From NCBI GenBank assembly GCA_040878325.1, contig JBBDMM010000010.1, positions 26,782 through 90,781 on the forward strand: a stretch of DNA of 64,000 nucleotides. Direction: 5' to 3'. The position numbers and the translations under genes are program-made. This DNA comes from Acidimicrobiia bacterium (lineage in GTDB: Bacteria; Actinomycetota; Acidimicrobiia; Spongiisociales; UBA11373). Each line of letters begins with the position of its first letter. Positions within the stretch are counted from its first letter, which is position 1. This document shows, in pieces, positions 23,398-55,229 of the stretch. Under the pieces are notes generated by a model. The model did not search any database, was not told the origin of the DNA, and saw nothing but the letters and a program-made list of their open reading frames with translations.

Positions 23398-23715
23398 GGG
23401 ACGGTGGGGTTCCGTGACTCGAGATTTCCCAATACGCAGCGAAGCAACTACCGGTTCCATATGGCAACGTCGATAGCGATCATGGGAGGCGTCAAAAGGG
23501 GTGACGCCGAATCGCTTGCTGCCGTCGATCTCTCATTAATCAAGCACTCCCTGAATCCTGCCTACAAGGCCGTCGATAAGGTCATGAACAAGGAGGTCGC
23601 CCCTGCAACACGCTAGACCAAGTCGCAAAGTCCTCGATCTCCACCCGCAATCGCCAGCCCCGGCATCGCGCCGGTCGGCCTGTCTATTGTGCGGCCCGGC
23701 GCGGGAGGACACAGT
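23398..23715 (+). other. Intergenic region with promoter of operon B
   Basis: The 318-base gap holds a TATTGT -10-like box at 23685-23690 and a strong GGGAGGA Shine-Dalgarno at 23703-23709 in front of the next gene. An open frame at 23461-23616 (51 aa, MATSIAIMGGVKRGD onward) has no ribosome-binding site and no family; it is not annotated as a gene. No other structure was seen. Confidence 0.5.
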
Positions 23716-25617
23716 TTGAACTGGCTATGGGATCAGACCGATGCTGGGAAGATCGGTCTATCTGGCGATATCGCGAAACTGTTCCGACACGAGGAGCCCA
23801 AGCAGCCCGGCGTCTTCGCTCAAGATGCACCACCTGCTGCCGCCACTCTGCTTGCCCGCGAAGTGATCCAGAACTCCTGGGACGCAGCGATCGAGCTCAA
23901 GGAGCAGCTAGGCCCCTCGGCGGATCATCAGTTCTCGATCACCTTCGAATTCGCCGACTTGATCGGTGATGAGAAACGCGCGCTAATCGAGGCGCTCGAC
24001 CTGGCAGGCCTGGCCGACCGGGTCGGGCAGATCGATCGCCGGTCGATTGGACTGGGCCAGCACGACTGCCTTGATCAACTCGATGACTCGGGGGCCCCCC
24101 TGAGCGTGCTGAGGATCCTTGAGCACGGTGCCACCGGGATGTATGGGCCGTGGACCCAGAACAAGTCACACATGTATCTGGCTCTCGTCAGCCTCGGGTA
24201 TACCGAGAAGTTGGCTGGCGCTGGTGGGTCATATGGGTATGGGAAAGCCGGATTGATCAACGGGTCCCGGATACGGTCTGTGATCGCGTACAGCTGCTTC
24301 GCCGAGCGGCAGGATGACCCCGGTGTTACCCGGCGGCTTTTGGGGATGACGTATTGGGGCCAGCACGACATCGGCGGTGCCAATTTCACCGGGATTGGAA
24401 GCCTCAGCACCGGAAGAGGTGGCCTAATCGAGCCCCATATCGATGATGAGGCAGACAGCGTCGCCGCCTCGATGGGCTTCACCGCGAGAAGTAGTGATGA
24501 GGTCGCTGGGCTCGGCACATCCTTCCTCCTCATCGATCCAACGGTTGGGCCGGAGGATCTGAGGCGGGCCATCGAGCGATCATGGTGGCCGGCCCTGCAC
24601 GAGGGCGACTTCATCATCGATATCACCGGTGCAGACGGGTCGTCCCACCCGCCGCGCCCGATGCAGGACGAGACCCTGCGGTCGTTCATCGATGCGTGGG
24701 AACTGGCGGTCGGACGCCGAGACGCTCGCCGCGACGAGTGGGCGAGCGAGCTGTCAGGCCCGAGCGCCGCATCCCCAGATGGCGAACGTTTCGACGCCGT
24801 CGGGAACCTGGGCTTGGTCGCGGATCTTTCGGGCTGGTCCTACGCGGACGCGCAGGTCGGGCCCGAGGACGAAGAGGTCAGCCAAAAGAGTCTCGTTGCG
24901 CTGACCAGGGGACCCCGCATGGTCGTTGAGTACTTTGTGGCTGGGCAGAGTCCGCCCTATCTGCGTGGGGCGTTCAGTGCTTCTTCCGAGATAGACGACC
25001 TGTTGAGGCGAACTGAGCCCAAGGCCCACGATTCCTGGAGAACCAAGCCAAGCGACGGGGAGGTCGACCCCTATGCGGCGACTTTGGCAGACCATGTCAT
25101 CAAGCGAATTCGCTCTGCGGTCAACAACCATCGCGGTCGCCTCAAGCCGGCAGTGCCCCCACCCGAGGATCTGAACCTTCCGTTCTTCAATGAGATCATG
25201 CGGCGAGTCATGTCGGGTGCAGGGAAGGGAACTCGACAGCCTGTACCCGAGGTGCGCGAGATTTCGATTCATCTCAGGCAGGGCCCCAGGGAGTCCTCAA
25301 ACGGATTGATCGAAATGGAGGGCACCGCGACGTTCTCATTGTCGGACCATTACGACGGGGAATCGGCGGATGTAGAGGTGTCGATCTCCTACAAGTTCAT
25401 CGAAGATGGCCGCGTCGGGGCGTCGGCGGACCTAACCCTTTCAGCGCCCGACGGTGCCGTCGCCGTTGGGCCTGGGGTGTACCGTGCCAGGCTTGATCGC
25501 GAGAGCACGATCGCGATCGGCTTCTGCTCGGAACCCTATGACCCCCGGTGGTCCGGACGGCTATTTGCCAATGCCGAGATCACAAAGGTTGCTCACTCGG
25601 GAATAGCTACCGAATGA
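23716..25617 (+). CDS. Operon B: GHKL ATPase (MORC/MutL-like)
   Basis: A 633-residue ATPase of the GHKL fold. The N box LLAREVIQNSWDAA has E49, N53 and D56; a degenerate second motif ILEHGATGM (about 134-142) and a glycine-rich lid GGSYGYGKAGL (about 170-180) follow. The C-terminal half (about 290-633) is beta-rich and unassigned. Prokaryotic MORC/MutL-like ATPases are known partners of restriction-modification genes, which fits the methyltransferase and Vsr genes downstream. TTG 23716 was chosen for its Shine-Dalgarno; an in-frame GTG at 23689 overlaps the -10 box. Likely a DNA clamp or conformational switch. Confidence 0.8.
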   Translation: MNWLWDQTDAGKIGLSGDIAKLFRHEEPKQPGVFAQDAPPAAATLLAREVIQNSWDAAIELKEQLGPSADHQFSITFEFADLIGDEKRALIEALDLAGLADRVGQIDRRSIGLGQHDCLDQLDDSGAPLSVLRILEHGATGMYGPWTQNKSHMYLALVSLGYTEKLAGAGGSYGYGKAGLINGSRIRSVIAYSCFAERQDDPGVTRRLLGMTYWGQHDIGGANFTGIGSLSTGRGGLIEPHIDDEADSVAASMGFTARSSDEVAGLGTSFLLIDPTVGPEDLRRAIERSWWPALHEGDFIIDITGADGSSHPPRPMQDETLRSFIDAWELAVGRRDARRDEWASELSGPSAASPDGERFDAVGNLGLVADLSGWSYADAQVGPEDEEVSQKSLVALTRGPRMVVEYFVAGQSPPYLRGAFSASSEIDDLLRRTEPKAHDSWRTKPSDGEVDPYAATLADHVIKRIRSAVNNHRGRLKPAVPPPEDLNLPFFNEIMRRVMSGAGKGTRQPVPEVREISIHLRQGPRESSNGLIEMEGTATFSLSDHYDGESADVEVSISYKFIEDGRVGASADLTLSAPDGAVAVGPGVYRARLDRESTIAIGFCSEPYDPRWSGRLFANAEITKVAHSGIATE

Positions 25618-26603
25618 GTAGAGAGACCAGGACGGTCCGCCCCTTCGTCGGTCTTGATGCCCTTGAGCGGTGCTTGGATCACACGACCCTTTACTTCGGC
25701 CAGGAACCGTGTGAACCCAACTCAAGTTTAGCAGCTGACATAGAGATCCATGAGTTCCTGATAAGGCCCGTATCGCTGGAGTGGGTGCCCGAGGGCCAGT
25801 TCGAGGCCTTCCGCGCTGGACTCCTAGAGGCATGCGTTGCGGCGGGTATAGCCCCTGAGTCTGTGAGTCTCGCTGCGGTTGCGATGAGCGGCTTTCTGAA
25901 GCTGTCGCAGGTGGTGCTCAATGTTTCGCTTGTGGAGCTCGATCGTCTGGATCGCGTTGTCGACCTCGCCGCTGACCCACGTCCTGACCCGTTTCGCACT
26001 CCGTTCAACGGATTCGGTGTCGACGTGTATCTCCTGCTTTCGGAGGCCGTCGATGCTCGGCCCCTGAAGCCGTCGAAGAAAGGAACCTGGCTCTCGCGGG
26101 TCAGTTTCCGAATCGACACGCACCTCGCGCCAGCCCTGCTTCCGCCCACTCCGCTGACCGGTGAGCTCCGACAGCAACTGGGCCTTCCGGCTCGCACGCT
26201 TCGATATTTGCAGTTCGGGGATCACGATCTCCTCGAGCCCTACCGTGAGCAGGAACAGCCAGTCTTCTACGTCGACGAAGACATCCTCGCGCAGCTAAGC
26301 GTTCGTCGGACGTCGGCTGCGAGCAAAGCGATCCAGCTTCAGCTAGCCCAGGACTTCGTGGCCGCGGTGGTTCGTCGCGCCGCAGGTCAGCCGGATCTTG
26401 AGACGGTCGCCTACGACGATGTTCGCGAGAGTCTCCTCGGTAGCGTCATCCGGCTCGCCGCCGGTCCAAAAGCCTTGGATGGCGATCGGCAAACCCTTCT
26501 GGTGATGGTCCGCAACGACCCCGAGTACGTCATCGCCAGAGCCGAGCACTTCGTCGATGTGGCAAGCGGATTTGTAAATGTCCTGAAGGACGGGGACTCA
26601 TGA
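25614..26603 (+). CDS. Operon B: uncharacterised 329-residue protein
   Basis: Soluble protein of mixed alpha/beta character with no recognised catalytic motif. It begins MSRETRTVRPFVGLDALERC and overlaps the GHKL ATPase gene by four bases (ATGA) and the next gene likewise, so it is made in step with both. No membrane segment or signal. By position it is probably a dedicated subunit of the ATPase complex. Family not recognised. Confidence 0.65.
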   Translation: MSRETRTVRPFVGLDALERCLDHTTLYFGQEPCEPNSSLAADIEIHEFLIRPVSLEWVPEGQFEAFRAGLLEACVAAGIAPESVSLAAVAMSGFLKLSQVVLNVSLVELDRLDRVVDLAADPRPDPFRTPFNGFGVDVYLLLSEAVDARPLKPSKKGTWLSRVSFRIDTHLAPALLPPTPLTGELRQQLGLPARTLRYLQFGDHDLLEPYREQEQPVFYVDEDILAQLSVRRTSAASKAIQLQLAQDFVAAVVRRAAGQPDLETVAYDDVRESLLGSVIRLAAGPKALDGDRQTLLVMVRNDPEYVIARAEHFVDVASGFVNVLKDGDS

Positions 26604-27292
26604 CCTACCCCGTCCTGACCGGAACGAAGTGCGCAGAGCTCGCTCGGCAGCTCTTGCAGGGGACGTCCCCTGCGATCGAGGCGTTTGCCGACTGGGTGGG
26701 CGTTGGCCCTGAGGTCGACCTCGGCCCGATTGAGCGGGCTGCGGCGCTGATTCTCGCCGAGATGACGTCCGCCGGTGATTCCGACAAGGACATGTTCGAG
26801 GGCCGTTACTGCGTGCTCATTCACGACGCGTTGGCGGCGGTTCCGATCGAGATTCGGGATGACCGGGGCTTCTGGCGGTTCCTCGCCCTCAAGTACTTCT
26901 GGCCATTCATCAAGTGGCGCGAGGCAGAAGCGTTCGAGCGTGAGAACCACCTGAGATATGTGGACGCTGCCTCCAGTACGGAGTCAGTCATCACTCGAAT
27001 GCACCTTCGGGCGGCGGCAGTCGGCGGTCAGGAGTGGGCGCGTTTGGCTGGTGGAATCCCCAAGTCCACGGACTTCTGGCGCAGTCACATCCTTAGAGTG
27101 CGAACCTGTACCGCGCCGCCGGTGGCGAGGGCCTTTGCGTCTCGCCAGATGGACGAGAGGCTCAGCACCCCCTTGGTTCGGCAAGTAGCGCGCCGGGTGA
27201 ATCGAACATGGACGAACGTGGAGTTGCACCTTTACGATGACGATGAGGCGCGCGATCTCATCGATGATCTCTGGTTGGGTGATGCCGAGTGA
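26600..27292 (+). CDS. Operon B: uncharacterised 230-residue protein (possibly DUF6339-like)
   Basis: Soluble helical protein. The block GFWRFLALKYFWPFIKWREAE followed by an arm of Arg/Trp-rich sequence recalls small uncharacterised proteins (DUF6339-like) found beside DNA-methyltransferase defence genes; this is a tentative memory-based match. Four-base overlaps on both sides (ATGA upstream, GTGA into the methyltransferase) show tight co-translation. Role unknown. Confidence 0.62.
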   Translation: MTYPVLTGTKCAELARQLLQGTSPAIEAFADWVGVGPEVDLGPIERAAALILAEMTSAGDSDKDMFEGRYCVLIHDALAAVPIEIRDDRGFWRFLALKYFWPFIKWREAEAFERENHLRYVDAASSTESVITRMHLRAAAVGGQEWARLAGGIPKSTDFWRSHILRVRTCTAPPVARAFASRQMDERLSTPLVRQVARRVNRTWTNVELHLYDDDEARDLIDDLWLGDAE

Positions 27293-28611
27293 CTGAACGG
27301 CTGGTGATGGATACTTACTCGGCTCTGCAAGGTGGTAGGCAGACCTTTGAGGGGGTCGCCGGGCGCGTCGTGCATCGGTTGTCATTGGGCGCTCTCCGGT
27401 CGACGTCATCCGTGGCATCTCCCGACTGGGCAAACTCCGATCCCAAAGGCGCGTGGTGGCGCGCCTACCTCGAGGGCAGCGTTCCGGTTCCAGGGGTCGT
27501 CGAGAGTCGCGTGCTGCGCACCGTCGATCTTTTCTGTGGACCCGGTGGCTTGGCCAATGGACTCAAGGCCTTGTGTTCTGACCTCGGCGTTACGGTGGTT
27601 TCAGAGCTGGCGGTCGATCAGGATCCGAACGCCACGGTCGTGTACGCGGCGAACCACGGGACCCGCCGTCGTTCGACTGATTCGGTGGCTCGGCTAGTCG
27701 ACTTCAGCGTCCGCAAGCGGCCCGAAGGTGCCGATTTCACATATCCACCGGACTTGACCGACCGCGGGCTTTCGCAAGCGATCAACGGGGTCGATTTGGT
27801 CCTGGCAGGACCACCGTGCCAAGGCCACTCGAACCTGAACAACCACACCCGCCGTGAGGATCCTCGTAACAGCCTGTACTTGACCGTGCCGGCATTCGCG
27901 GTCGCGATCGGCGCGCCGATGTGCATTATCGAGAATGTCCCGGCGGTCCTGAACGACTCCACTCGTGTCGTTGAGATTGCGAGATCCCTATTCGAGCGCA
28001 ACGGATACCACGTCGAGACTGGGATGCTGTCAGCCGCTCACATGGGTTGGCCCCAAACCAGGCGTCGCCACTTCCTAGTCGCGCGGCGCGAGGTGCCGCC
28101 CATTCCTTTGGACACGGTCGCTCGCACGCTGGGGGAGGATTCCCCGAGATCCGTTTGGTGGGCGATCGGGGATCTCGAGGACATCACGAGCGACAGCCTT
28201 CTCGACGCCGTCACCGGGCTCTCTGCCGAGAACGTGAGCCGGATCGACTGGCTGTTCGACAACGATGAGCACGACCTGGCACTGCCGGAGCGCCCGGTGA
28301 GCCACAGGGGTGGAACCACCTATACGGCCGTCTACGGGCGCCTACAAAAGGATGCACCGTCCCAGACAATCACCACTGGATTCATGTCGCCGGGTCGGGG
28401 CAGATACGTGCATCCGACTCGCCGTCGCGTCTTGACGGCGCATGAAGCCGCTCGCATCCAAGGGTTCCCCGACACTTATGCATTCAATCCGAATCCATCC
28501 CAGCCACCGACGCGGGCCCTTCTTGCCAAGTGGATTGGCGACGCAGTCCCTATGCCCCTCGGATATGGAGCTGCGCTTTCGGCCCTAGGGGGTGGGCTTG
28601 GCCAAGAATGA
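27289..28611 (+). CDS. Operon B: DNA (cytosine-5-)-methyltransferase
   Basis: A 440-residue C5-cytosine methyltransferase. Motifs in order: I DLFCGPGGLANGL (about 80-92), IV LAGPPCQGHSNLN with catalytic Cys177, VI IIENVPAV (ENV 215-217), VIII QTRRRHF (256-262), and X IGDAVPMPLGYGAAL near the C-terminus. The N-terminal 70 residues precede the catalytic core and may be an adapter. GTG 27289 overlaps the previous stop; an ATG at 27307 is possible. It probably marks host DNA so that operon B ignores it; the target sequence cannot be predicted. A Vsr gene follows, consistent with m5C chemistry. Confidence 0.93.
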   Translation: MTERLVMDTYSALQGGRQTFEGVAGRVVHRLSLGALRSTSSVASPDWANSDPKGAWWRAYLEGSVPVPGVVESRVLRTVDLFCGPGGLANGLKALCSDLGVTVVSELAVDQDPNATVVYAANHGTRRRSTDSVARLVDFSVRKRPEGADFTYPPDLTDRGLSQAINGVDLVLAGPPCQGHSNLNNHTRREDPRNSLYLTVPAFAVAIGAPMCIIENVPAVLNDSTRVVEIARSLFERNGYHVETGMLSAAHMGWPQTRRRHFLVARREVPPIPLDTVARTLGEDSPRSVWWAIGDLEDITSDSLLDAVTGLSAENVSRIDWLFDNDEHDLALPERPVSHRGGTTYTAVYGRLQKDAPSQTITTGFMSPGRGRYVHPTRRRVLTAHEAARIQGFPDTYAFNPNPSQPPTRALLAKWIGDAVPMPLGYGAALSALGGGLGQE

Positions 28612-28915
28612 GAGTTGGTCGGATACTGAGATCAGGGCCTCGCTCGAGTGCTACACGGCCATGGTGTTGCTAGAGCATGCCGGCATCGGGTTCTCGAAGG
28701 CCGACTTCCGTCGATTAGTAGAAGGGATGCTCGCCGGTCGATCTGAGAAGGCGATCGACTTCAAGTGGTGCAATGTCAGCGCCATCCTTGAAGAATCCGG
28801 GTTCTCCTATTTAAGCGCGTACAAGCCGATGGAGCACTATCAGGAGCGACTGCGAGAACTGACCGGCGTCTGGATGCTCGAGCACCCGCTTCTCCGCAAG
28901 CTCCTGAGCGGGTGA
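28592..28915 (+). CDS. Operon B: small stand-alone domain otherwise fused to HNH nucleases
   Basis: A 107-residue protein with the pattern SWSDTEIRASLECYTAM, then AGRSEKAIDFKWCNVSAIL, then YKPMEHYQERL. Known HNH endonucleases carry a similar N-terminal region (W-S/D-E ... RS-x-I-x-K ... N-(I/V)-SA-(V/I)-L ... YKP). Here the domain stands alone, so it may act as a DNA-recognition or adapter subunit. GTG 28592 overlaps the methyltransferase end by 20 bases. Function of the domain is not established. Confidence 0.65.
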   Translation: MGLAKNESWSDTEIRASLECYTAMVLLEHAGIGFSKADFRRLVEGMLAGRSEKAIDFKWCNVSAILEESGFSYLSAYKPMEHYQERLRELTGVWMLEHPLLRKLLSG

Positions 28916-28919
28916 GCTG

Positions 28920-29345
28920 TTGGTCGTGAGCGGACCTTCCGCCAGCTCGCCTGCTGCCCTCAAGCGGATGCAGGCGACTCGTCGGCGCGATACCCCGAAG
29001 GAGGTCGCCCTACGGAGTGCGCTCCACCGCCTGGGACTGCGGTTTCGGCTCCACCGACCGATCGAAGGTGTCGCTCGAACCAGGCCCGACGTCGTCTTCA
29101 TATCGGCCCGGGTAGCTGTATTCGTGGACGGATGCTTCTGGCATCGCTGTCCCGAGCACGGGACCGACCCCAAGGCGAACACTCGATGGTGGAAGGAGAA
29201 GTTGGACCGCAACGTCGAGCGCGACCGGCGGGTGGGCGAGCAGCTCGCCGAATTGGGATGGAGGGTGATGCGGATTTGGGAACACGAAGACCCTGATCAA
29301 GCTGCGGACCGGGTAAACGCGGCTGTCCGTGCGTTACAGCGATAG
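28920..29345 (+). CDS. vsr: Operon B: Vsr-family very-short-patch-repair-type endonuclease
   Basis: A 141-residue nuclease with the Vsr signature: ATRRRDTPKEVALRSALH (with the helix Glu), RPDVVF with catalytic Asp57, and FVDGCFWHRCPEHG. Classical Vsr nicks beside T:G mismatches produced by deamination of 5-methylcytosine, matching the adjacent C5 methyltransferase; in defence operons Vsr-like proteins may also be the restriction nuclease. Start TTG 28920 or GTG 28926; neither has a good Shine-Dalgarno. It is the last gene of the run. Confidence 0.88.
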   Translation: MVVSGPSASSPAALKRMQATRRRDTPKEVALRSALHRLGLRFRLHRPIEGVARTRPDVVFISARVAVFVDGCFWHRCPEHGTDPKANTRWWKEKLDRNVERDRRVGEQLAELGWRVMRIWEHEDPDQAADRVNAAVRALQR

Positions 29346-29434
29346 CTCTTCCGCTGGACGGTCGAACCTCGACACTCACGCTCGATCGAAGTGCTCGACG
29401 CTTCGCGTCGGTGAAACCCGTCGCGCTCGCGGCG

Positions 29435-29440
29435 TATCGT
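29435..29440 (+). promoter_or_regulatory. Leaderless-type promoter of the twin-nuclease operon
   Basis: TATCGT lies 7 bases before the ATG at 29448, so transcription probably starts at or next to the start codon. No Shine-Dalgarno is present. The gap 29346-29447 shows nothing else. Confidence 0.5.
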
Positions 29441-29447
29441 CCCCGCA

Positions 29448-30254
29448 ATGGTTTCAGGCGAGGGGCAACGAGTCATCGACACCGTGATCACGCGTCAGCG
29501 CGATTGGGCGGCCGGCCGAGCGCTCGATCCGAGCGGCACGCGGTTCTTGCATCCAGAGGATGCGCTTCAGGTCGAGCTTGATCCGACGACACGCGCCGAG
29601 TTTGCAGCCGGTGCCGGGGGAGAACTCGATCGCCTCACCAGCCTGCGCAGCTCGAGCTGTCTGGCCATCAACGTCTTTTCCCCTTGGCGTGGCTCGCCCG
29701 GCCCGGTACTCGATGCTCTTGGGTGGAACGTGAGCCAGGCGCCCCTGCAGTTCGAGGCCCGGCAGCCGACCGGATTGGGAGGTGTCGCGCCGCATCTCGA
29801 CGTACTTGCCTCTGGGACCGGAAAGGCACTCGGGATCGAGTGCAAGTTTCTCGAGCTGTACGCCGAGGCGAGGAACACCTTCCGCCCTTCGTACTTTGAT
29901 CGCGACGGTCTGTGGAGGGGGCTACCTCGGGCTGAGGCGTTGGCGCGAAGCATCGCCGAGGGATTGGTGAGGTTCCGATGGTTGGCGGCCGGTCAGTTGG
30001 TGAAGCATGCGCTTGGCTTGTCCAAGAACCAGCCGGACGGCTTCGCGCTTCGGCTTGTGTGGTATCGGGTAGAGGGGCCGATCGCCGACGCGCTCGAGAC
30101 TGAGATCGCGGACTTCGGGCGAGCGGTGGGGGAGGAGCTGTCATTCGAGGCGATCACCTATCAGCGGCTCATCTCGGCGCTGCGACAATACGCCGAACCG
30201 ATTCCGGGCTACTTCGACTACCTCGCGGCGCGCTACGGGCTCGACGGGCGATGA
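29448..30254 (+). CDS. Putative PD-(D/E)XK restriction endonuclease (PGN_0703-like)
   Basis: A 268-residue protein with a restriction-fold core HLDVLASGTGKALGIECKF: Asp118, Glu131 and Lys133 form the D-x(n)-E-x-K signature. Layout and the ECKFLELYA helix recall the PGN_0703-type putative restriction endonucleases, though this was not searched. It overlaps the next gene, also PD-(D/E)XK-like, by four bases (ATGA). Lying directly after the methyltransferase/Vsr operon, it could supply its cutting activity or form a separate two-nuclease module. Confidence 0.68.
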   Translation: MVSGEGQRVIDTVITRQRDWAAGRALDPSGTRFLHPEDALQVELDPTTRAEFAAGAGGELDRLTSLRSSSCLAINVFSPWRGSPGPVLDALGWNVSQAPLQFEARQPTGLGGVAPHLDVLASGTGKALGIECKFLELYAEARNTFRPSYFDRDGLWRGLPRAEALARSIAEGLVRFRWLAAGQLVKHALGLSKNQPDGFALRLVWYRVEGPIADALETEIADFGRAVGEELSFEAITYQRLISALRQYAEPIPGYFDYLAARYGLDGR

Positions 30255-30982
30255 GCCTTCCGCTCCTTGATCTGTGCAGTCGTCCCGAGGTGAATCGCCG
30301 TGACGGATTGGCCTCAGCAGTCGCTGGAGTCGACGTAGATGAGCTGGCGGCGGCATACAGGGACACGGTGTCGCTGGCTCCCCGGAGGAGGGCGCCGTAT
30401 CTGGTGGCGACACACGACGGAGCGGGTGGAGCGTCCAATTTCAAGAGCGAGAAGGTGCTGGCCAAGGCGATCTTCAATGCGGACCGACCACTCCAGGTCG
30501 GGGATCGCCATGTACAGATCATCGATTACGAGGTGCCGCTGAGAGACGTCCGCGCCGACGCCGGAGTCGGGGAGATCGACCTTCTCGGGGTGGAGGTCCA
30601 GGAACCCCGTCTCTGGATCATTGAACTCAAAGTGCACCCGAACTCTGACACTCCCCTTAAGGCACTGCTTCAGGCGCTCCGCTACAGCGCCATCCTCGAG
30701 GCGAACAGCGACAAGATCGCCTCAGAAGTCTTTGAGCGCCGGGGTGTCCGAGTCGAGTGGCCCGCGTCGATCGCCGTTGCCGCCGACGGTTCGTACTGGA
30801 CGAGGTTGGCTGACACGGTCCCGGCCGGCGAGTCGTTGGTGGCACTACGCAGGCTTTCCATGCAGGTGACCAAACGGCTCTCGATCCCGATTCATCTGGT
30901 CGATCTGGGGAACCTGGTGGCCGAGATGGGCGCGAATCAACGAGTGCTGCTCCGAGACCCGCTCACCGTGGAGACGCTTTGA
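30251..30982 (+). CDS. Putative PD-(D/E)XK nuclease (NucS/RecB-like core)
   Basis: A 243-residue protein. Core features are a helix with Glu67 (FKSEKVLAKAIF), GVGEIDLLGVE with Asp110, and LWIIELKVH with Glu125 and Lys127, the order of a PD-(D/E)XK nuclease. The segment QIIDYEVPLRDVRAD before it fits the beta hairpin of this fold. Translationally coupled to the preceding nuclease gene, so the two probably form a heteromer. Substrate unknown. Confidence 0.65.
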   Translation: MSLPLLDLCSRPEVNRRDGLASAVAGVDVDELAAAYRDTVSLAPRRRAPYLVATHDGAGGASNFKSEKVLAKAIFNADRPLQVGDRHVQIIDYEVPLRDVRADAGVGEIDLLGVEVQEPRLWIIELKVHPNSDTPLKALLQALRYSAILEANSDKIASEVFERRGVRVEWPASIAVAADGSYWTRLADTVPAGESLVALRRLSMQVTKRLSIPIHLVDLGNLVAEMGANQRVLLRDPLTVETL

Positions 30983-31051: not shown

Positions 31052-31094
31052 TATCTTCGAAGGGATGACTCGAACGCGAACGCCTCCAGGATGA
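31052..31094 (+). promoter_or_regulatory. Promoter and short upstream ORF before the RecQ-type gene
   Basis: A TATCTT box (31052-31057) is followed 7 bases later by ATG 31065, opening a 9-codon frame (MTRTRTPPG) whose TGA overlaps the helicase ATG at 31091 (ATGA). Leaderless translation of this mini-ORF could deliver ribosomes to the helicase start, which lacks a Shine-Dalgarno. Inferred from spacing only. Confidence 0.4.
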
Positions 31095-33139
31095 CCTACG
31101 ACCGAGCCCTTGAGCTGCTCCGGTCTGCGACCGGGTCGAATGTGGCCGAGTTTCGTGGCGGGCAGTGGGAATCGATCGAAGCGGTGGTTGTCGGGCGGCG
31201 CCGGGTCTTGGTCGTCCAGCGCACGGGGTGGGGCAAGTCGGCGGTGTACTTCGTTGCGACTCGTCTGCTGCGTGAGGCGGGCATGGGACCAACCGTCGTG
31301 GTGTCGCCGCTTCTCGCACTGATGCGGAATCAGATCGAAATGGCCGCGCGGCTCGGTCTTTCGGCTAAGACGGTCAACTCGACGAATCGAGACGACTGGG
31401 ACGCGATCTTTGTCGAGATCGCCGAAGGCCGCGTCGACGTCCTCTTCATCTCCCCGGAGAGGCTGAACAACCCGGAGTTCCGCTCGGAAGTGTTGCCCGA
31501 TCTCCTGAAGTCCCTTGGTCTCCTTGTGGTCGATGAGGTCCACTGCATCTCGGACTGGGGCCACGACTTCCGGCCCGACTACCGCCGGTTGGCCAATGTC
31601 GTGGCCCTGTTGCCCCCGGGGGTGGCGGTGCTCGGCACCACCGCGACGGCGAACGATCGGGTGGTGTCGGATGTTCGGGAGCAGCTGGGCGAGAACCTGA
31701 TGGTGGTGCGAGGGCCGCTCGACCGAACCAGCCTGCGGCTGCAAATTGTCGGGCTTGAGTCACCGGCCGACCGGCTCGCCTGGCTCGCCGGCACCATTCC
31801 AGGCCTTGCAGGCTCGGGAATCGTCTACACGCTGACGATCAAAGGTGCCCAGCGGGTCGCCCGCTGGCTTCGGTCCCAGGGGGTCGACGCGGTTGCCTAT
31901 TCGAGCGAGACCCCTGACGAGGAGCGGATCGACATCGAGCGACGGCTCAGCGATGGCTCGCTGAAGGTGGTCGTGGCCACCTCGGCACTTGGGATGGGTT
32001 ACGACAACCCCTTCATCCAGTTCGTCATCCACTACCAGTCGCCGGGCTCACCGGTGGCGTACTACCAGCAGGTCGGCCGCGCCGGGAGGGCGGTCGACTC
32101 GGCCATCGGCATCCTCATGACGGGATCAGAAGACGCCGACATCCAGGACTACTTCATCCGCACTGCGTTCCCCACGGAGGAGCATGTCGCGGAGATCCTG
32201 GGGGCTCTCGATGGTGCAGATGGCCTTACGGTGCGGCAGCTCGAGCAAGTCAACATCCCGGCGGCCCGCCTCGCCGGTGCTCTCAAGGTGCTCGAGGTGG
32301 AGGGGGCGGTGTACCGCGAAGGTTCGCGGTGGTACCGATCGGCCGAGCGGTACCAGTACCCCAGGGAGCGCGTTGCGGCCGTGACAGCCCAACGTCGTGC
32401 CGAACAGGCGATCATGCGCGAGATCATCGAAGGGGATGGATGCATCCTGCATCAACTGCGTCTCAGCCTCGACGATGACTCGAGCGCGCCATGCGGGCGG
32501 TGCAGCAACTGCGTCGGCGAAGTTCTCCCTGTCGCAGTTCCCGGTGGCCTCGCGCAGGCGGCGGTCGACTTCATTCGGGGGGAGTCCACCACCATCGAAC
32601 CTCGTAAGCGGTGGCCGTTCCCGATCAACGGAACCACCACGATCGGGCGTCCCTTTGCCGAGGGGCGGGCGTTGACGCGGTGGGGGGACCCTGGGTTGGC
32701 CGCCCTGGTGGAGCGGGGCAAGTACCGCGACGGTTCCTTCTCTGACGACCTCGTGATCGCGGCGGTGGAATCCATTCGCCGGTGGTCGCCGCGCCCGGCC
32801 CCAGAATGGGTGACCTCGGTGCCCGGTCTTGCTTCAGGTGATCTGGTCGGCGACTTCGCGGTTCGTTTGGCCGATCGCCTCCGTCTGCCATACCTCCCGG
32901 CCGTGAGAAAGTTGAGGGTGAATCGGCCGCAGAAGACCATGGAGAACTCGACCCGGCAGGTCAAGAACCTACTGGGGGTGTTCGAAGTGGTGTCGCCCTG
33001 TGCTGGGCCGGTTCTCCTGGTGGACGACATGGTGGATTCACGGTGGACCCTGACCGTTGTCGGCGATCTTCTCGGGAGGAGCGGGGTAAGTCACGTGTAC
33101 CCTCTCGCGCTCGCGGACACATCACGGGGAAGCGGATGA
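31091..33139 (+). CDS. RecQ-family helicase fused to a C-terminal phosphoribosyltransferase-like domain (copy 1)
   Basis: A 682-residue fusion. The RecQ part shows the Q-like FRGGQWESIEA, Walker A QRTGWGKSAV (GKS 48-50), the DEVHCISDWGHDFRPDYRRL box (148-167), motif VI YYQQVGRAGRA and a cysteine zinc cluster CILHQLRL then CGRCSNC. After an unassigned region (about 500-590), the C-terminus carries VLLVDDMVDSRWTLTVVGDL, the PRPP-binding signature of type I phosphoribosyltransferases such as ComF. RecQ enzymes unwind DNA 3' to 5'. The stop overlaps the DprA-like start (ATGA). A close paralogue lies at 52243-54294. Probably genome defence or DNA uptake control; the nucleotide chemistry is unproven. 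Confidence 0.88.
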   Translation: MTYDRALELLRSATGSNVAEFRGGQWESIEAVVVGRRRVLVVQRTGWGKSAVYFVATRLLREAGMGPTVVVSPLLALMRNQIEMAARLGLSAKTVNSTNRDDWDAIFVEIAEGRVDVLFISPERLNNPEFRSEVLPDLLKSLGLLVVDEVHCISDWGHDFRPDYRRLANVVALLPPGVAVLGTTATANDRVVSDVREQLGENLMVVRGPLDRTSLRLQIVGLESPADRLAWLAGTIPGLAGSGIVYTLTIKGAQRVARWLRSQGVDAVAYSSETPDEERIDIERRLSDGSLKVVVATSALGMGYDNPFIQFVIHYQSPGSPVAYYQQVGRAGRAVDSAIGILMTGSEDADIQDYFIRTAFPTEEHVAEILGALDGADGLTVRQLEQVNIPAARLAGALKVLEVEGAVYREGSRWYRSAERYQYPRERVAAVTAQRRAEQAIMREIIEGDGCILHQLRLSLDDDSSAPCGRCSNCVGEVLPVAVPGGLAQAAVDFIRGESTTIEPRKRWPFPINGTTTIGRPFAEGRALTRWGDPGLAALVERGKYRDGSFSDDLVIAAVESIRRWSPRPAPEWVTSVPGLASGDLVGDFAVRLADRLRLPYLPAVRKLRVNRPQKTMENSTRQVKNLLGVFEVVSPCAGPVLLVDDMVDSRWTLTVVGDLLGRSGVSHVYPLALADTSRGSG

Positions 33140-34074
33140 AGCTGTCAGACGACGCCAAGGCCGTGCTCGTGCTGACCACTCGCCTCGGCGACCCGCAGCG
33201 CCCCGCTCTTCCCCCTGGCCAGTGGCACTCCTTCTCGCAGGCTCTCGGCGACTCTGGCCTCAGGCCATGCGATGTGTTCTCGCCCGACGCTCTCGAACGC
33301 ATGGGACTCGACCCGGAGCGGAGGGCGCGGATCGATACCCTCGTCGCCGACGCCGCCCACGTGATGGTGGACCTCGAGTCGGTGAGTGCCCGTGGCATCT
33401 GGGCGATCACCGCGGCGGATGAGGATTACCCAGAGCGGCTCAGAACCCTGGACTCCCTGGCACCACCGGTTATTTTCGGGGTCGGTGACCACCACCTCCT
33501 CGGTCGGCGGGGGGTGGGGATTGTCGGGTCGCGTGACGTGGGGCCCGACGGGGTGGACGTGGCCCGGGAGGTTGCTACCGCCGCGGCCGAAGAAAGCCTG
33601 ACAGTTCTGTCGGGGGCGGCACGCGGCGTCGATCAGCAGGCGATGGCAGCGGCGTATCAGGCGGGCGGGTCAGTAATAGGCGTCCTCGCCGACAGCCTGG
33701 AACGGCAGATCAAGACCGCCGATGTGCGGTCCTCGCTCGACGCAGGCACCACATGCTTGGTCACCCAGCAGCATCCCAAGACTGGCTTCACTCCGGCGGC
33801 GGCGATGGCCCGCAACAAACTGGTCTACGCGATGGCATCAGCGACGTTCGTGGTGGCATCGGGCCTGAAGGGTGGGACCTGGGAGGGGGCGACGGAAGCG
33901 CTGCGAAGAGGCTTCGGGCGCGTGGCGGTCTGGCGCGGCCCAGGCCAGGGGCCGGGGAACGCGGAACTCGAGAAACTCGGTGCCCGCTCGGTCGACAAGG
34001 TTGCCGACCTGTTCGAATACGTCGCGGAGGAACGGCTGCCAGAGCATGAGCAACTCACGATCGAGCTGAGTTAG
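33136..34074 (+). CDS. DprA/Smf-like protein (copy 1)
   Basis: A 312-residue protein of the DprA Rossmann-like fold: VGIVGSRDVGPDGVDVA, LTVLSGAARGVDQQAMAAA and GGSVIGVLADSL match the order of DprA motifs; FTPAAAMARNKLVYAMA and GTWEGATEAL complete the fold. DprA normally binds ssDNA and loads RecA during transformation; here it is translationally coupled to the RecQ-PRTase fusion and has a non-standard N-terminal domain (1-90). A partner of identical length follows the second RecQ copy. Confidence 0.87.
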   Translation: MKLSDDAKAVLVLTTRLGDPQRPALPPGQWHSFSQALGDSGLRPCDVFSPDALERMGLDPERRARIDTLVADAAHVMVDLESVSARGIWAITAADEDYPERLRTLDSLAPPVIFGVGDHHLLGRRGVGIVGSRDVGPDGVDVAREVATAAAEESLTVLSGAARGVDQQAMAAAYQAGGSVIGVLADSLERQIKTADVRSSLDAGTTCLVTQQHPKTGFTPAAAMARNKLVYAMASATFVVASGLKGGTWEGATEALRRGFGRVAVWRGPGQGPGNAELEKLGARSVDKVADLFEYVAEERLPEHEQLTIELS

Positions 34075-34086: not shown

Positions 34087-34167
34087 CTAGGACTCGCGCG
34101 GAGCCAACCGTCGCGCCAATGCCAACAGCACCGCCTTGTCCTCGGCGGCGTACTCGCTATCAGCCAC
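34087..34167 (-). CDS. Possible 26-residue coupled peptide
   Basis: A short frame (MADSEYAAEDKAVLLALARR onward) starts at GTG 34167, inside the last codons of the AbiEi-like gene, and runs 78 bases past it. The overlap and helical, charged composition would suit a coupled antitoxin-like peptide, but nothing in its sequence proves translation. Confidence 0.2.
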   Translation of the reverse strand: MADSEYAAEDKAVLLALARRLAPRES

Positions 34168-35254
34168 GCCAGGCATCCTCGTTCTCCGTCATCCAAGCGA
34201 GCAGTTCCTCAGCCTCTGCGGGTCCACGTCCGGGTGCGAGGTCAACGAACAGTTGAGTCAACGCAACCTGCACCAACCCTCCTTCGCGGCGCGTCCTCGC
34301 GAAGATGACCTGATCGAATGGCTCGAGCAGGATCACGTTTGCCCCACGGTCGGCGGGTCGGATATCGAGGACTCCAGCGAGGCTGGGGAGATTTGAGCTG
34401 TACACGAGGGCAAGTCGCGGGGGAGCGACTCTGAGGCCTTGCGGCAACGCATAGGTGCCAGACAGGGCGTACTCCTGCGCACTGGACGTCTGAAGGTCGC
34501 GGATGACTGCATCAAGCCCACGAGGTGCGATGTACTCCGCCGCCCGGTTCGATCCGAGCAGCGAGTAGTCCTGCGTCCATCGTCTGAGGGTGCCGATCCA
34601 GTCGACGAACGCAATCGAGCCATCCCGGTCACGTTCGAGGAGCTCCTCATTCTCCAGCAGCCCCGCAACCCGGGACAGGGTCGCGGGTGCTACGTCCGCT
34701 CGTTCCGCTAGCTCACGGAGCCCGGTGGGCGCCTTGAAGTCCACGAGTGCGCGCAGCGCGGCTCCGGTTGCCCGACCCCGGAGGCTCTTTAGGGTCGAGT
34801 TCCCTGGGTTGGGGTTTCGGTCCGCACCCTGGGTCTCGATGAAGACAGCGGGCCTGGCGCTGGTTAGCCAGAGGTTTCCGGTCAGATCAGCGTATCCGAT
34901 GCCGCGTTCCCGGAGCTTGGCGCGTGCAGTAGGAGAGATGTACGGAGAAGCCAACAGCCCGATCGCGGAGGTGCCCGTGCCCTGGTCGATTGACGATACA
35001 TACCGGGATAGTTGCTGGGCTGCATTGGCCAGGTCGCGTGTCGTGCTCGTGGTCTTGGCCTCGATGACGAGAGTGACTGATGTGCCGTCGGGTGCTTCGA
35101 GCGTGAGCATCATGTCGGGCCGTAGTTGAGGGGGCAGGCGGCTATTCGGGGTTTCGCGGTAAGACCATGTGGCAGGCAGGCGCTCTTTGAGCGATTGCAC
35201 CACTTCAGCGAGGAGTTCGCTCTCGGGTCGATCCGCGGTAGTTCGATTGATCAT
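34160..35254 (-). CDS. AbiEi-like winged-helix protein with N-terminal PD-(D/E)XK-like domain
   Basis: A 364-residue protein. The N-terminal 130 residues carry LRPDMMLTLEAPDG then LVIEAKTTS (Pro46-Asp47, Glu65, Lys67), a PD-(D/E)XK-like core. Residues about 175-215 form a winged helix (GLRELAERADVAPATLSRVAGLLENEELLER), followed by an unassigned C-terminal domain. The layout recalls type IV antitoxin/regulator AbiEi relatives, but no AbiEii nucleotidyltransferase follows. It is divergent from two small genes across a 61-base gap full of inverted repeats, so it probably represses itself and them. Confidence 0.7.
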   Translation of the reverse strand: MINRTTADRPESELLAEVVQSLKERLPATWSYRETPNSRLPPQLRPDMMLTLEAPDGTSVTLVIEAKTTSTTRDLANAAQQLSRYVSSIDQGTGTSAIGLLASPYISPTARAKLRERGIGYADLTGNLWLTSARPAVFIETQGADRNPNPGNSTLKSLRGRATGAALRALVDFKAPTGLRELAERADVAPATLSRVAGLLENEELLERDRDGSIAFVDWIGTLRRWTQDYSLLGSNRAAEYIAPRGLDAVIRDLQTSSAQEYALSGTYALPQGLRVAPPRLALVYSSNLPSLAGVLDIRPADRGANVILLEPFDQVIFARTRREGGLVQVALTQLFVDLAPGRGPAEAEELLAWMTENEDAWRG

Positions 35255-35849: not shown

Positions 35850-36161
35850 ATGAAGAAGTGGGATGAGCTGACCAGTGACCGTCGTGCCGCTCCTGGCTAT
35901 CGGGAGCGGGTCGACGCCGAGAAGCGCAAGGCGCTCGGGGAGCTGCATGAGTTCAACCTCGCCGGGCTGCGGCGCATTCTCGACTTCACCTAGGAGGAGC
36001 TCGCCGGGCGCATGGGCACCGACCAGTCGCGGATCTCGCGGGTCGAGAACGAGGCCGACATGCGACTGTCCACCCTCCGGGCCTATGTCGAGGCCCTCGG
36101 CGGACAGATCAGGATCCTCGCCGAGATCCCCGGCCAGGAGGCGTTTTCGCTTTCGGTGTGA
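35850..36161 (+). pseudogene. HigA-type (XRE) antitoxin gene with a nonsense mutation
   Basis: The 104-codon sequence is nearly identical to the intact antitoxin gene at 44668-44979, but codon 48 is TAG (35991-35993) where the intact copy has CAG, cutting the protein just before the helix-turn-helix. The rest of the frame continues intact to the natural TGA at 36159-36161. No toxin gene or remnant precedes it. The gap 36162-36254 shows nothing. Confidence 0.85.
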
Positions 36162-36254
36162 TGCCCCTGCCCGATCGGCACGGTTTGGAGCCCGAATGGT
36201 TAGTCCGCCCGGCTCAGAAGGGTATTGACACGTGAAGAGAAGATGGAGAGGCTG

Positions 36255-36996: not shown

Positions 36997-37401
36997 GTGT
37001 CTGTAACCGATCCACAACTCCGATCGCTGTATGCTCGGCTTGAGGAGGTCCTCGGCCCCGATCACGCCGAAACGCTCATGACCCATCTTCCTCCGAGGCA
37101 CGAACTCGCCACCAAGGGTGATCTTCAGGAACAGATAGGTCTGGTGCGCTCGGATCTTCAGGAACAGATAGGTCTGGTGCGCTCTGATCTTCAGGAACAG
37201 ATAGGTCTGGTGCGCTCGGAGGTCGCCCTTCTCACCGTCCGCTTCGATGGTCTCGACGAGCGGTTTGATCGTCTCGAGGACCGCTTCGAAGGGCTCTATT
37301 CCCTCATGCACGCCCAGTTCCGCAACTATTCGGTGGTGGCCGCCTCGTTCATGACCGGGATGACCGCGGTGTTCGGGGTGATGCTGGCCTCGTTCGGGTA
37401 G
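36997..37401 (+). CDS. Coiled-coil protein with C-terminal membrane helix (copy 2)
   Basis: A 134-residue paralogue of the gene at 8382-8780. It begins SVTDPQLRSLYARLEEVLGP, has a coiled coil lengthened by three exact 11-residue units (DLQEQIGLVRS, from three 33-base repeats at 37120-37218), then FDGLDERFDRLEDRFEGL and a C-terminal membrane helix (SVVAASFMTGMTAVFGVMLA). GTG 36997 was chosen over GTG 36988 by alignment with copy 1 and its upstream region. Function unknown. Confidence 0.75.
   Translation: MSVTDPQLRSLYARLEEVLGPDHAETLMTHLPPRHELATKGDLQEQIGLVRSDLQEQIGLVRSDLQEQIGLVRSEVALLTVRFDGLDERFDRLEDRFEGLYSLMHAQFRNYSVVAASFMTGMTAVFGVMLASFG
37120..37218 (+). repeat. Three 33-base tandem repeats within the coiled-coil gene
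   Basis: Units 37120-37152, 37153-37185 and 37186-37218 are almost identical and encode one 11-residue coiled-coil (hendecad) unit each. Copy number could change by slippage and alter rod length without breaking the frame. Confidence 0.85.
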
Positions 37402-51265: not shown

Positions 51266-51327
51266 CGGTTGAAGAACCCTACACAAAGCGTTGCGCCGGT
51301 GCCCGGGTCAGGAGGGACGGCGATCGC

Positions 51328-52074: not shown

Positions 52075-52242
52075 CGGGCCTCCTCGGGGTGAAACTCCGC
52101 GACTCTACTCCGTGGAAGGTCCTGGGATGAGGTGGGTGGAAGCGGGTGTTGGATCTCCTCAAGGTGCAGATCGGGTCCGGTCCATTTCTGTCCGACGGCA
52201 TCCGTAGCCTGTTATTAGTTGCCATCCCCAGGAGGGCTGAAC

Positions 52243-54294
52243 TTGGACACGACTCATGAACGCGCACTGGACTTGCTGCGAGCGATCACCGTCGACGATG
52301 CGGAGTTCCGGCCGGGGCAGTGGGAGGCGATCGAGGCGGTGGTCGTCCACCGCCGTCGCGTTCTCGTCGTCCAGCGAACCGGGTGGGGCAAGTCGGCGGT
52401 GTACTTCATCGCCACTGCACTCCTCCGTGAGGCTGGGATGGGCCCCACGGTCGTGGTCTCCCCGCTGCTGGCACTCATGCGCAATCAGATCGAGATGGCC
52501 GAACGCCTCGGGATCAACGCGAGGACGGTCAACTGGACGAATCGTGGCGACTGGGATCAGGTATTCGCCGAAATCGCACGCGGGGAGATCGACGTCCTCT
52601 TCATCTCCCCGGAGCGCCTCAACAACCCCGAGTTTCGAACGAGCGTGCTCCCTGATCTGCTGCGAGCGCTGGGGCTCCTGGTAGTGGACGAGGTGCACTG
52701 CATTTCGGATTGGGGTCACGACTTTCGGCCCGACTACCGGCGGCTCTCGCGGATCGTCGACCTGCTTCCGCCAGGCGTGGCCATCCTGGGGACCACCGCC
52801 ACGGCCAACGATCGGGTGATTCGCGACGTCGAGGAACAGCTCGGTGACGACCTCATTCTGGTGCGCGGACCGTTGGATCGGCCGAGCTTGAGACTCCAGG
52901 TCATGGCGATGGCCTCGCGTGCCGAGCGGCTGGCGTGGCTGGCAGAAATCCTGCCCAGCCTCGAAGGGTCCGGCATCGTGTACGCGCTGACTGTCAAGGA
53001 TGTGCGTCGGGTCGCCGATTGGCTCCGGGACCGGGGGGTCGATGCCGCGGCGTACACCGGCAAGACCGACCCCGAGGAGCGGCTCGAGATCGAGCGTCGG
53101 CTGACCGGCGGTGGCTTGAAGGTTGTCGTCGCCACCTCGGCCCTGGGTATGGGCTACGACAACCCGCACATCCACTTCGTGATCCATTTCCAGTCGCCGG
53201 GTTCCCCGGTCGCCTACTACCAACAGGTAGGGCGCGCCGGTCGCGCCACGGAGTCATCGGTTGGGGTGCTCCTGACCGGCGCAGAGGATGGCGACATCCA
53301 GGACTTCTTCATCCGAACGGCGTTTCCGACGGAGCCCCACGTCGAGGCGATCCTCTCCGCCCTCGACTCCGCCGACGGAATGACGACCCGCCAGCTGGAG
53401 ACCATCAACCTTCCTTTCGGACGGCTCGAGGCCGCTCTCAGGGTCCTTGAAGTGGAGGGCGCGGTCTACCGGGATGGGGCCAGGTGGTACCGCTCAGCGG
53501 AGCGCTACCAGTATCCCGTCGAGCGCGTCGCTGGCGTGATGGAGCAGCGACGCAGCGAGCAGGCCACGATGCGCCGGATCATCGAGTCGGACGACTGCAT
53601 CATGCATCAGCTTCGGTTGAGCCTCGACGACCACACCAGTTCGCCCTGTGGCCGATGCGCCAATTGCGTAGGGGACGTTCTCCCACGTGAGGTCGCCGAG
53701 GAGACGGTGCGCGCCGCCGTCGATTTCATCCGGTCCGAGGCGGCGATCATCGAGCCGCGCAAGAGGTGGCCCCATCCGGTCGATGGCACCTTCGTCATCC
53801 AGCACCCGCTCGAGGAAGGTCGCGCGCTCACCCGCTGGGGGGACCCCGGGTTGGCGCTACTCGTCGAAAGGGGGAAGTACCGGGACGGCGGGTTCTCCGT
53901 GGAACTCGTCGATGCCGCCGCAGACCTGGTCACTCGGTGGGCCCCCGACCCTGCGCCCACGTGGGTTACCTCGGTGCCGACCCTGGGAGGCGACGATCTC
54001 GTGGGAGACTTCTCCCGGTTGCTTGCCGAACGCATCGGCATGGTCTACCAACCGGTGGTTCGCAAGGTCCGGCGCAATCGGCCGCAGAAAGAAATGCAAA
54101 ACTCCACCCAGCAACTTGGCAATGTGTCAGAGGTGTTCGAGGTAGGCCCCTGTCCCTCCGGTCCGGTGCTTCTCGTCGACGATATGGTGGATTCGCTGTG
54201 GACGATGACGACGATCGGAGGGTTGCTCCGGGGGGCAGGCTCGGGGCCCGTGTACCCTCTGGCCCTCGCGGACACATCCCGAGGTGACGAGTGA
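52243..54294 (+). CDS. RecQ-family helicase fused to a phosphoribosyltransferase-like domain (copy 2)
   Basis: A 683-residue close paralogue of the fusion at 31091-33139, alignable end to end. It has Walker A QRTGWGKSAV, DEVHCISDWGHDFRPDYRRL, YYQQVGRAGRA, the cysteine cluster CGRCANC and the C-terminal PRPP-type motif VLLVDDMVDSLWTMTTIGGL. TTG 52243 was chosen: an AGGAGGG Shine-Dalgarno (52230-52236) precedes it and the start matches copy 1. It overlaps the DprA-like gene by four bases (GTGA). This copy has chromosome-like high GC and lies outside the defence island, next to MazEF. Confidence 0.88.
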   Translation: MDTTHERALDLLRAITVDDAEFRPGQWEAIEAVVVHRRRVLVVQRTGWGKSAVYFIATALLREAGMGPTVVVSPLLALMRNQIEMAERLGINARTVNWTNRGDWDQVFAEIARGEIDVLFISPERLNNPEFRTSVLPDLLRALGLLVVDEVHCISDWGHDFRPDYRRLSRIVDLLPPGVAILGTTATANDRVIRDVEEQLGDDLILVRGPLDRPSLRLQVMAMASRAERLAWLAEILPSLEGSGIVYALTVKDVRRVADWLRDRGVDAAAYTGKTDPEERLEIERRLTGGGLKVVVATSALGMGYDNPHIHFVIHFQSPGSPVAYYQQVGRAGRATESSVGVLLTGAEDGDIQDFFIRTAFPTEPHVEAILSALDSADGMTTRQLETINLPFGRLEAALRVLEVEGAVYRDGARWYRSAERYQYPVERVAGVMEQRRSEQATMRRIIESDDCIMHQLRLSLDDHTSSPCGRCANCVGDVLPREVAEETVRAAVDFIRSEAAIIEPRKRWPHPVDGTFVIQHPLEEGRALTRWGDPGLALLVERGKYRDGGFSVELVDAAADLVTRWAPDPAPTWVTSVPTLGGDDLVGDFSRLLAERIGMVYQPVVRKVRRNRPQKEMQNSTQQLGNVSEVFEVGPCPSGPVLLVDDMVDSLWTMTTIGGLLRGAGSGPVYPLALADTSRGDE

Positions 54295-55229
54295 AGCTGT
54301 CGAACGACGCCAAGGCGGTGCTCGTCCTCACCACCCGGCTCGGCGACTCCCGGCGACCATCCCTCGCCCCCGGTCAGTGGCACTCCCTCTCCCGAGCCCT
54401 GGGTGACGCCGGCTTGACGCCCGGCAACGTGTTCGACTCCGAGGCCCTTGGAAGCGCCGGCCTCGACCCGGAGAAGCGGGAGAGGATCGATGCGCTCGTC
54501 GGGGATGCCGCCACTGTAGTCGTCGAGCTGGAGTCCTTGACATCCAAGGGAATCTGGACGGTGACGATTGCCGACGACGACTACCCAGCGGCTCTTCGGC
54601 GACTTGACCACCGAGCTCCACCAGTGCTGTTCGGGGTGGGGGAGCGGTCCTTGCTCGACAGCGGCGGCGTCGGCGTGGTCGGCTCCCGTGACGTGTCCGA
54701 AGAAGGAGTTGCGGTTGCCCGAGAGATCGCGGCCGCCGCCGCCGGTCGGGGTCTGCCTGTCGTTTCGGGCGGGGCCAGGGGAGTGGACCAACAGTCGATG
54801 ACCGCCGCCTACGAAGCCGGCGGGTCGGTCGTCGGTGTTCTGGCCGACAGTTTGCTGCAGAGGATCCGAAGTGCCGATGTGCGCGCCTCTCTCGACACCG
54901 GGGCGACTTGCCTGATCACAGCGCAGCATCCCAACACTGGGTTCTCGCCCGCGGCGGCGATGGCGCGCAACAAGCTGGTCTACTCCCTCGCCGATGTCAC
55001 CGTGGTCGTCGCCTCCGAGGCCAAGGGAGGAACGTGGGAAGGCGCGACGGAGGCGCTGACCCAGAGGATTGGAAGGGTCGCGGTATGGCGGGGCCAGGGG
55101 CAAGGATCTGCGAACGACCAGTTGATCGAGGCCGGAGCACGTCCGATCGAGTCGGTCGACCAGCTGTGGGAACTGCTTGCCGAGGCTGAGGCGCCAATGC
55201 CACAGCAGATGACGATCGAACTGGGCTAA
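54291..55229 (+). CDS. DprA/Smf-like protein (copy 2)
   Basis: A 312-residue paralogue of the gene at 33136-34074, the same length: GVGVVGSRDVSEEGVAVARE, LPVVSGGARGVDQQSMTAAY, GGSVVGVLADSL, FSPAAAMARNKLVYSLA. Translationally coupled to the second RecQ-PRTase gene. Conservation of the pair argues that the two proteins work as one unit. ssDNA binding is expected from the family; the N-terminal 90 residues differ from classical DprA. Confidence 0.86.
   Translation: MKLSNDAKAVLVLTTRLGDSRRPSLAPGQWHSLSRALGDAGLTPGNVFDSEALGSAGLDPEKRERIDALVGDAATVVVELESLTSKGIWTVTIADDDYPAALRRLDHRAPPVLFGVGERSLLDSGGVGVVGSRDVSEEGVAVAREIAAAAAGRGLPVVSGGARGVDQQSMTAAYEAGGSVVGVLADSLLQRIRSADVRASLDTGATCLITAQHPNTGFSPAAAMARNKLVYSLADVTVVVASEAKGGTWEGATEALTQRIGRVAVWRGQGQGSANDQLIEAGARPIESVDQLWELLAEAEAPMPQQMTIELG

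What the first reader, a model, noticed from the sequence alone, without database searches (positions are those of the whole stretch)
31091..34074. RecQ helicase fused to a PRTase-like domain and coupled to DprA
One polypeptide joins a complete RecQ helicase, including its zinc cluster, to a C-terminal PRPP-binding motif, and is translationally coupled to a DprA-like gene. Helicase, ssDNA-binding fold and nucleotide-chemistry domain together inside a defence island suggest a DNA-sensing or nucleotide-signalling defence module.
Basis: partly seen in the sequence, partly recalled or inferred. Interest (0 to 1): 0.85.

Follow-up and report, generated by a model that had tools for sequence, protein, structure and literature searches.

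The report
Known PsyrTA/RqlHI toxin-antitoxin pair, duplicated
The helicase-phosphoribosyltransferase fusion and its DprA-like partner are the already described PsyrTA (RqlHI) toxin-antitoxin/defence pair; the mildly unusual points are that this bacterium carries two diverged copies about 19 kb apart and that its antitoxin is a short form.

Summary
Window 31091-33139 encodes a 682-residue RecQ-type helicase with a C-terminal PRTase-fold domain, and 33136-34074 a DprA-like protein starting on an ATGA overlap. The interpretation as a new module is superseded: the proteins match the PADLOC models PsyrT (E=1.9e-255) and PsyrA (E=4e-84). This is the PsyrTA / RqlHI toxin-antitoxin-like system (Sberro 2013; Russell & Mulvey 2015), for which the fusion, operon order, toxic PRTase domain and direct restraint by the DprA-like partner were already shown. 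AlphaFold plus structure search confirm the PRTase fold (best ComF, then the toxin ShosT); the domain is about residues 490-678, not 590-682. It is not housekeeping: full-length PsyrT is in 14 of 98 related genomes, and this genome has its own RecQ and DprA elsewhere. The antitoxin is the short form, lacking the ~130-residue C-terminal extension of E. coli RqlI. Most likely mechanism: a PRTase effector held in check by the DprA-like protein and released on infection or DNA stress; trigger and substrate remain unproven. Known kind, low novelty.

The parts
31091..33139 (+). psyrT/rqlH copy 1: RecQ-like helicase (aa ~1-355), winged-helix-like and four-cysteine zinc region (~356-485), C-terminal PRTase domain (~490-678)
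   Evidence: PADLOC PsyrT E=1.9e-255, 4-679 of 682; 51% identical to E. coli plasmid homologue; AlphaFold pLDDT 88.9; PRTase fold
33136..34074 (+). psyrA/rqlI copy 1: short DprA-like (SLOG/Rossmann) antitoxin, 312 aa, start ATG in ATGA overlap with psyrT stop
   Evidence: PADLOC PsyrA E=4e-84 covering 1-297 of 398; PF02481; start and overlap; no C-terminal extension
52219..54294 (+). psyrT/rqlH copy 2 (start codon uncertain; conserved part begins near 52246)
   Evidence: PADLOC PsyrT E=3.9e-254; 72% identical to copy 1; sister in tree, SH-aLRT 100
54291..55229 (+). psyrA/rqlI copy 2, short DprA-like antitoxin, GTGA overlap with psyrT copy 2
   Evidence: PADLOC PsyrA E=1.6e-89; 65% identical to copy 1
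27289..28611 (+). C5-cytosine DNA methyltransferase (defence neighbour of copy 1)
   Evidence: PF00145 E=5.7e-36; PADLOC DruM/MTase_II
28920..29345 (+). Vsr-type nicking endonuclease (defence neighbour)
   Evidence: PF03852 E=2.2e-16
29448..30254 (+). REase-ARP / PD-(D/E)XK nuclease (defence neighbour)
   Evidence: PF22558 E=1.3e-9

Best explanation
The locus is a PsyrTA (RqlHI) toxin-antitoxin-like defence pair in two copies. PsyrT is a DNA-translocating RecQ-like helicase carrying a PRTase domain. The PRTase domain binds PRPP and, when unrestrained, is the toxic/genotoxic effector. PsyrA, a DprA-like Rossmann protein translated from the overlapping start codon, binds the PRTase end of PsyrT and restrains it. 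On phage infection or DNA stress the restraint is lost, the PRTase perturbs nucleotides (the free pool, or nucleotides near DNA), DNA damage and SOS follow, and the infected cell stops or dies. Shown here: family membership, domain folds, conserved PRPP-loop residues, operon coupling, accessory distribution, defence context, second copy. Shown by others for E. coli RqlHI: PRTase-dependent toxicity, partner binding, SOS induction. Inferred: that these copies act the same way, the trigger, the PRTase substrate, and abortive defence. Identity about 0.97; mechanism beyond toxin restraint about 0.5.
For: Full-length PADLOC PsyrT and matching PsyrA for both pairs. 51% (toxin) and 34% (antitoxin) identity to an E. 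coli pair with the same order and overlap. In E. coli RqlH, PRTase deletion or the PRPP-pocket change D663A abolishes growth inhibition and SOS induction, and RqlI co-precipitates with RqlH only if the PRTase domain is present (PMC4670107); the matching motif D646-x-x-D649 is invariant here. PRTase fold by AlphaFold, nearest ComF and the toxin ShosT, which has a PDB entry with PRPP-Mg. DprA-like partner matches DprA and ShosA in the PDB; ShosTA is reported as a phage-defence toxin-antitoxin system whose PRTase toxin disturbs purine metabolism (PMC12593503). A PsyrA-like gene lies directly downstream in 79 of 85 loci with room for it, redundant loci included. Accessory: 14 of 98 relatives. Embedded in type I RM and BREX operons. 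Divergence of the two copies shows purifying selection (dN/dS about 0.14-0.17 by NG86, dS near saturation).
Against: No function was tested here. One native E. coli PsyrTA gave no detectable phage protection in K-12 and slowed growth (PMC12409345). [quoted passage not shown] coli, and helicase mutants gave complex phenotypes. Orphan PsyrT without PsyrA exists, so restraint by PsyrA is not universally needed. The glycine of the canonical PRPP loop is replaced (DDMVDSRWT), so catalysis may differ from classic PRTases.
Confidence: 0.8

Rival explanations
1. A DNA repair or uptake aid: the helicase unwinds, the DprA-like protein loads recombinase and the PRTase is accessory, as ComFA/ComFC/DprA in competence; not primarily defence.
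For: PRTase domain is closest in fold to ComF (Z 16.2) and the partner is DprA-like; the competence link was noted by others (PMC4670107; PMC5512222). Orphan RqlH exists in actinomycetes in housekeeping-like neighbourhoods.
Against: Patchy, 14 of 98 relatives; the genome has its own DprA and a RecQ-like gene; located within RM/BREX operons elsewhere; toxicity of unrestrained RqlH.
Confidence: 0.1
2. The PRTase acts on nucleotides in DNA during unwinding (modifies bases), and PsyrA helps to resolve the modification, as drawn in the Russell and Mulvey model.
For: Physical joining of helicase and PRTase; SOS induction and raised mutation rate without RqlI (PMC4670107); PADLOC DpdF models, of a DNA-modification system, also match both the helicase and the PRTase end.
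Against: No DNA adduct is reported in the papers read; ShosT, with a related fold, is reported to act on the purine pool.
Confidence: 0.2
3. One reading: a novel nucleotide-signalling module in which PsyrT makes a second messenger sensed by another protein.
For: PRPP-binding motif and SLOG-type partner; some SLOG proteins are proposed to bind nucleotides (general knowledge).
Against: The pair is a known two-gene unit and no constant third partner was seen in the annotated records read; published toxicity needs only RqlH.
Confidence: 0.04

Closest known systems
RqlHI of extraintestinal E. coli (Russell & Mulvey 2015, PMC4670107) / PsyrTA (Sberro et al. 2013)
   Same: RecQ-like helicase + C-terminal PRTase, downstream overlapping DprA-like gene, conserved PRPP motif; 51%/34% identity to an E. 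coli pair.
   Different: Antitoxin lacks the ~130-residue C-terminal extension; two paralogous pairs in one window; nearest relatives are actinobacterial, whereas paired rqlI was reported as nearly absent from Gram-positives (99.6% RqlH only).
Mycobacterium smegmatis RqlH (Ordonez et al. 2012, PMC3378886, as cited in PMC5512222)
   Same: Founding member of the RecQ-like + PRTase clade; 3'-5' translocase and helicase.
   Different: No RqlI partner in M. smegmatis.
ShosTA (PDB 8zvb, 8zvc, 8zvd; 9vzo)
   Same: PRTase toxin + DprA-like antitoxin, phage defence; PRTase fold match Z 11.8, antitoxin sequence match.
   Different: In PADLOC terms the partner is PsyrA, not ShosA (281 vs 103 bits), and this toxin carries a RecQ helicase; sequence identity to ShosT about 11%.
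DpdF (Dpd 7-deazaguanine DNA modification system)
   Same: PADLOC DpdF models match both the helicase part and the PRTase end.
   Different: Much weaker match than PsyrT (300 vs 847 bits; 142 vs a 550-bit cut-off in NCBIfam); other Dpd genes were not searched for here.

Membership tests
PsyrTA / RqlHI | RecQ-like helicase with C-terminal PRTase domain in one polypeptide | tested here: met
   PsyrT model full length; folds
PsyrTA / RqlHI | DprA-like partner directly downstream, same strand, overlapping or adjacent | tested here: met
   ATGA at 33136, GTGA at 54291; PsyrA model
PsyrTA / RqlHI | PRPP-pocket acidic residues required for toxicity (E. coli DIVD663) conserved | tested here: met
   D645, D646, D649, W652, T653 invariant in 56 homologues; aligned with E. 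coli VDDIVDS
PsyrTA / RqlHI | C-terminal extension of PsyrA as in E. coli RqlI (a variable trait, not defining) | tested here: not met
   312 aa, covers 1-297 of the 398-position profile. Short forms are common in the family (tail after the KGGT motif 65-104 vs 133-282 residues), so this marks a variant
PsyrTA / RqlHI | Toxicity of PsyrT alone, neutralised by PsyrA; phage defence | not testable with these tools
   Needs expression and phage assays
Canonical RecQ (NCBIfam recQ equivalog) | Score over the equivalog cut-off; RQC/HRDC domains | tested here: not met
   264 vs 640 bits; no RecQ_Zn_bind, RQC or HRDC Pfam hits
DprA (NCBIfam dprA equivalog) | Score over the equivalog cut-off | tested here: not met
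   100 vs 191 bits; the genome has another, much stronger PF02481 match on contig C18
ShosTA | PRTase toxin paired with ShosA | tested here: not met
   Toxin carries a RecQ helicase and matches PsyrT; partner scores PsyrA 281 vs ShosA 103 bits
DpdF | NCBIfam DpdF equivalog cut-off | tested here: not met
   142 vs 550 bits

The most novel reading that the evidence does not exclude
The two diverged PsyrTA pairs are insulated paralogues that respond to different phages or different DNA states, with the short PsyrA, which lacks the C-terminal region of E. coli RqlI, triggered differently from RqlHI.
Probability: 0.15. Interest if true: 0.4.

Novelty: new member of a known kind. Interest (0 to 1): 0.2.

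Why it matters
It removes a proposed new system from the list and gives it its right name. What is useful is the natural pair of diverged PsyrTA copies in one genome (a ready test of toxin-antitoxin specificity), and evidence that paired PsyrTA with a short antitoxin is frequent in Acidimicrobiia, which extends the published picture that Gram-positive bacteria carry RqlH alone.

Tried and rejected
Pfam did not detect the zinc cluster and gave no PRTase hit in the full-length protein at E<=0.001; for the C-terminal piece alone PF00156 was below its cut-off (E=0.0043), though 41 of 53 homologues match it at E<=0.1, and a profile search against PDB sequences gave PRPP synthetases and PRTases at E down to 1e-6. 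Phage records held no place covering 80% of PsyrT. A paper search for ShosTA by prefix returned unrelated words. The Sberro 2013 paper is not held, so its content is cited through other papers. A recent tandem duplication of the two pairs was rejected: 70% DNA identity, dS about 1.55. A housekeeping role was rejected by patchy presence. A universal pairing claim was rejected: several loci have no recognisable PsyrA downstream.

Full report
Observation. The ORF at 31091-33139 encodes 682 residues and the next gene begins on the ATGA overlap at 33136. The toxin-like protein has a RecQ-type helicase core, four invariant zinc cysteines and an invariant PRPP loop. A 197-residue C-terminal piece (residues 486-682), predicted alone with 53 aligned sequences, gives pLDDT 90. 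Its best structural match is ComF (Z 16.2 over 160 residues), followed by the toxin ShosT (Z 11.8) and many PRTases near Z 10.

Identity. PADLOC models name the pair PsyrT (E=1.9e-255) and PsyrA (E=4e-84). The literature shows that this architecture is known. M. smegmatis RqlH founded the RecQ-like clade to which RqlH belongs (Ordonez 2012, cited in PMC5512222). In E. coli RqlHI the PRTase domain is genotoxic, a single change in the PRPP pocket removes most of the toxicity, and the DprA-like RqlI co-precipitates with RqlH only when the PRTase domain is present (PMC4670107). Rousset et al. 2022 point to DprA homologues as antitoxins in shosTA, syrTA and rqlHI (PMC9122126). The window protein is 51% identical to an E. 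coli homologue, and its motif VDDMVDS aligns with VDDIVDS.

Second copy. A search for DprA in the window's own genome found three genes, two of them in this window. The other one in the window follows a second full PsyrT at 52219-54294. The two PsyrT proteins are each other's closest relatives in a 90-sequence tree (SH-aLRT 100; quick method, no bootstrap), but they are well diverged: 72% protein identity for PsyrT, 65% for PsyrA, 70% DNA identity. The helicase core is more alike (76%) than the PRTase domain (65%) or PsyrA (65%). This would fit co-divergence of toxin and antitoxin, but slower evolution of helicase cores in general explains it equally well.

Distribution and context. Among 98 related genomes searched, 14 hold a full-length or near-full-length PsyrT, and in the listed matches only the window's genome has two. 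The genome also has a separate RecQ-like gene and its own DprA on contig C18. Of 85 fetched PsyrT loci with at least 1.2 kb downstream (redundant loci included), 79 have a PsyrA-like gene there. In the six others inspection found no recognisable PsyrA; orphans are also annotated in Arthrobacter and Tsukamurella. PsyrTA lies between hsdS and hsdR in E. coli and between pglX and pglZ of a BREX-1 operon on an Acinetobacter plasmid. In the window, copy 1 follows a cytosine methyltransferase, a Vsr-type nuclease and a PD-(D/E)XK nuclease; copy 2 has no recognised defence neighbour among the ORFs scanned. The defence-island association is supported for copy 1 by examples; it was not tested statistically.

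Short antitoxin. Both window PsyrA proteins end about 68 residues after the KGGT motif. Across the loci where this motif was found the tail falls into a short group (65-104) and a long group (133-282). The E. coli protein is of the long type. The window pair is thus a common variant, not a unique one. Many of the short-antitoxin pairs come from Acidimicrobiia and other Actinomycetota, a group in which the 2015 survey, covering Gram-positives as a whole, found almost only unpaired RqlH.

Mechanism. Best supported: the PRTase is the effector and PsyrA its restraint. That was shown for E. coli RqlHI and is inferred here from conserved residues and operon structure. How infection releases it is unknown for this family; for the structurally related ShosTA, a review reports a PRTase/pyrophosphatase toxin that disturbs purine pools, a DNA-binding antitoxin and T7 Gp0.7 as trigger (PMC12593503). 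One published test of an E. coli PsyrTA found no detectable phage protection (PMC12409345), so the defence role should not be overstated.

Verdict. A real and correctly observed feature, already described as a system; a new, duplicated member with a short antitoxin. Interest is low.

Noticed in passing
window 52219-55229: Second complete PsyrTA pair, diverged sister of the first, flanked by genes without a defence signature (cyclase-domain protein upstream, ferritin-like protein downstream).
   Followed up: yes
window 23689-30982: Run of co-directional genes upstream of copy 1: weak PDC-M33A match, two unknowns, C5 methyltransferase, PDC-S36, Vsr, PD-(D/E)XK nuclease and an unknown protein; looks like a restriction-type cluster that may form one unit.
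   Followed up: partly
window 34160-35254 (-): Protein with weak IclR-type HTH and NucS-type nuclease-domain matches, convergent with psyrTA copy 1.
   Followed up: no
window 35850-36177 and 44668-44994: Two 328-bp direct copies 93.6% identical, possibly a small mobile repeat.
   Followed up: no
window 37119-37220: Repeated 36-bp units inside a small ORF (repeating EQIGLVRSDLQ on the + strand).
   Followed up: no
window 40210-43134, 45084-46391, 46517-49363, 50042-51286, 61196-63982: Several nucleotide-cyclase-domain and AAA/TPR regulator-like proteins close together.
   Followed up: no
L106 (Acinetobacter plasmid) and L107 (E. coli chromosome): PsyrTA placed inside BREX-1 and type I RM operons, in the same direction as the host operon.
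   Followed up: partly
L009, L033, L044, L058, L062: PsyrT without a recognisable PsyrA on mostly Acidimicrobiia contigs; what restrains it is unknown.
   Followed up: partly
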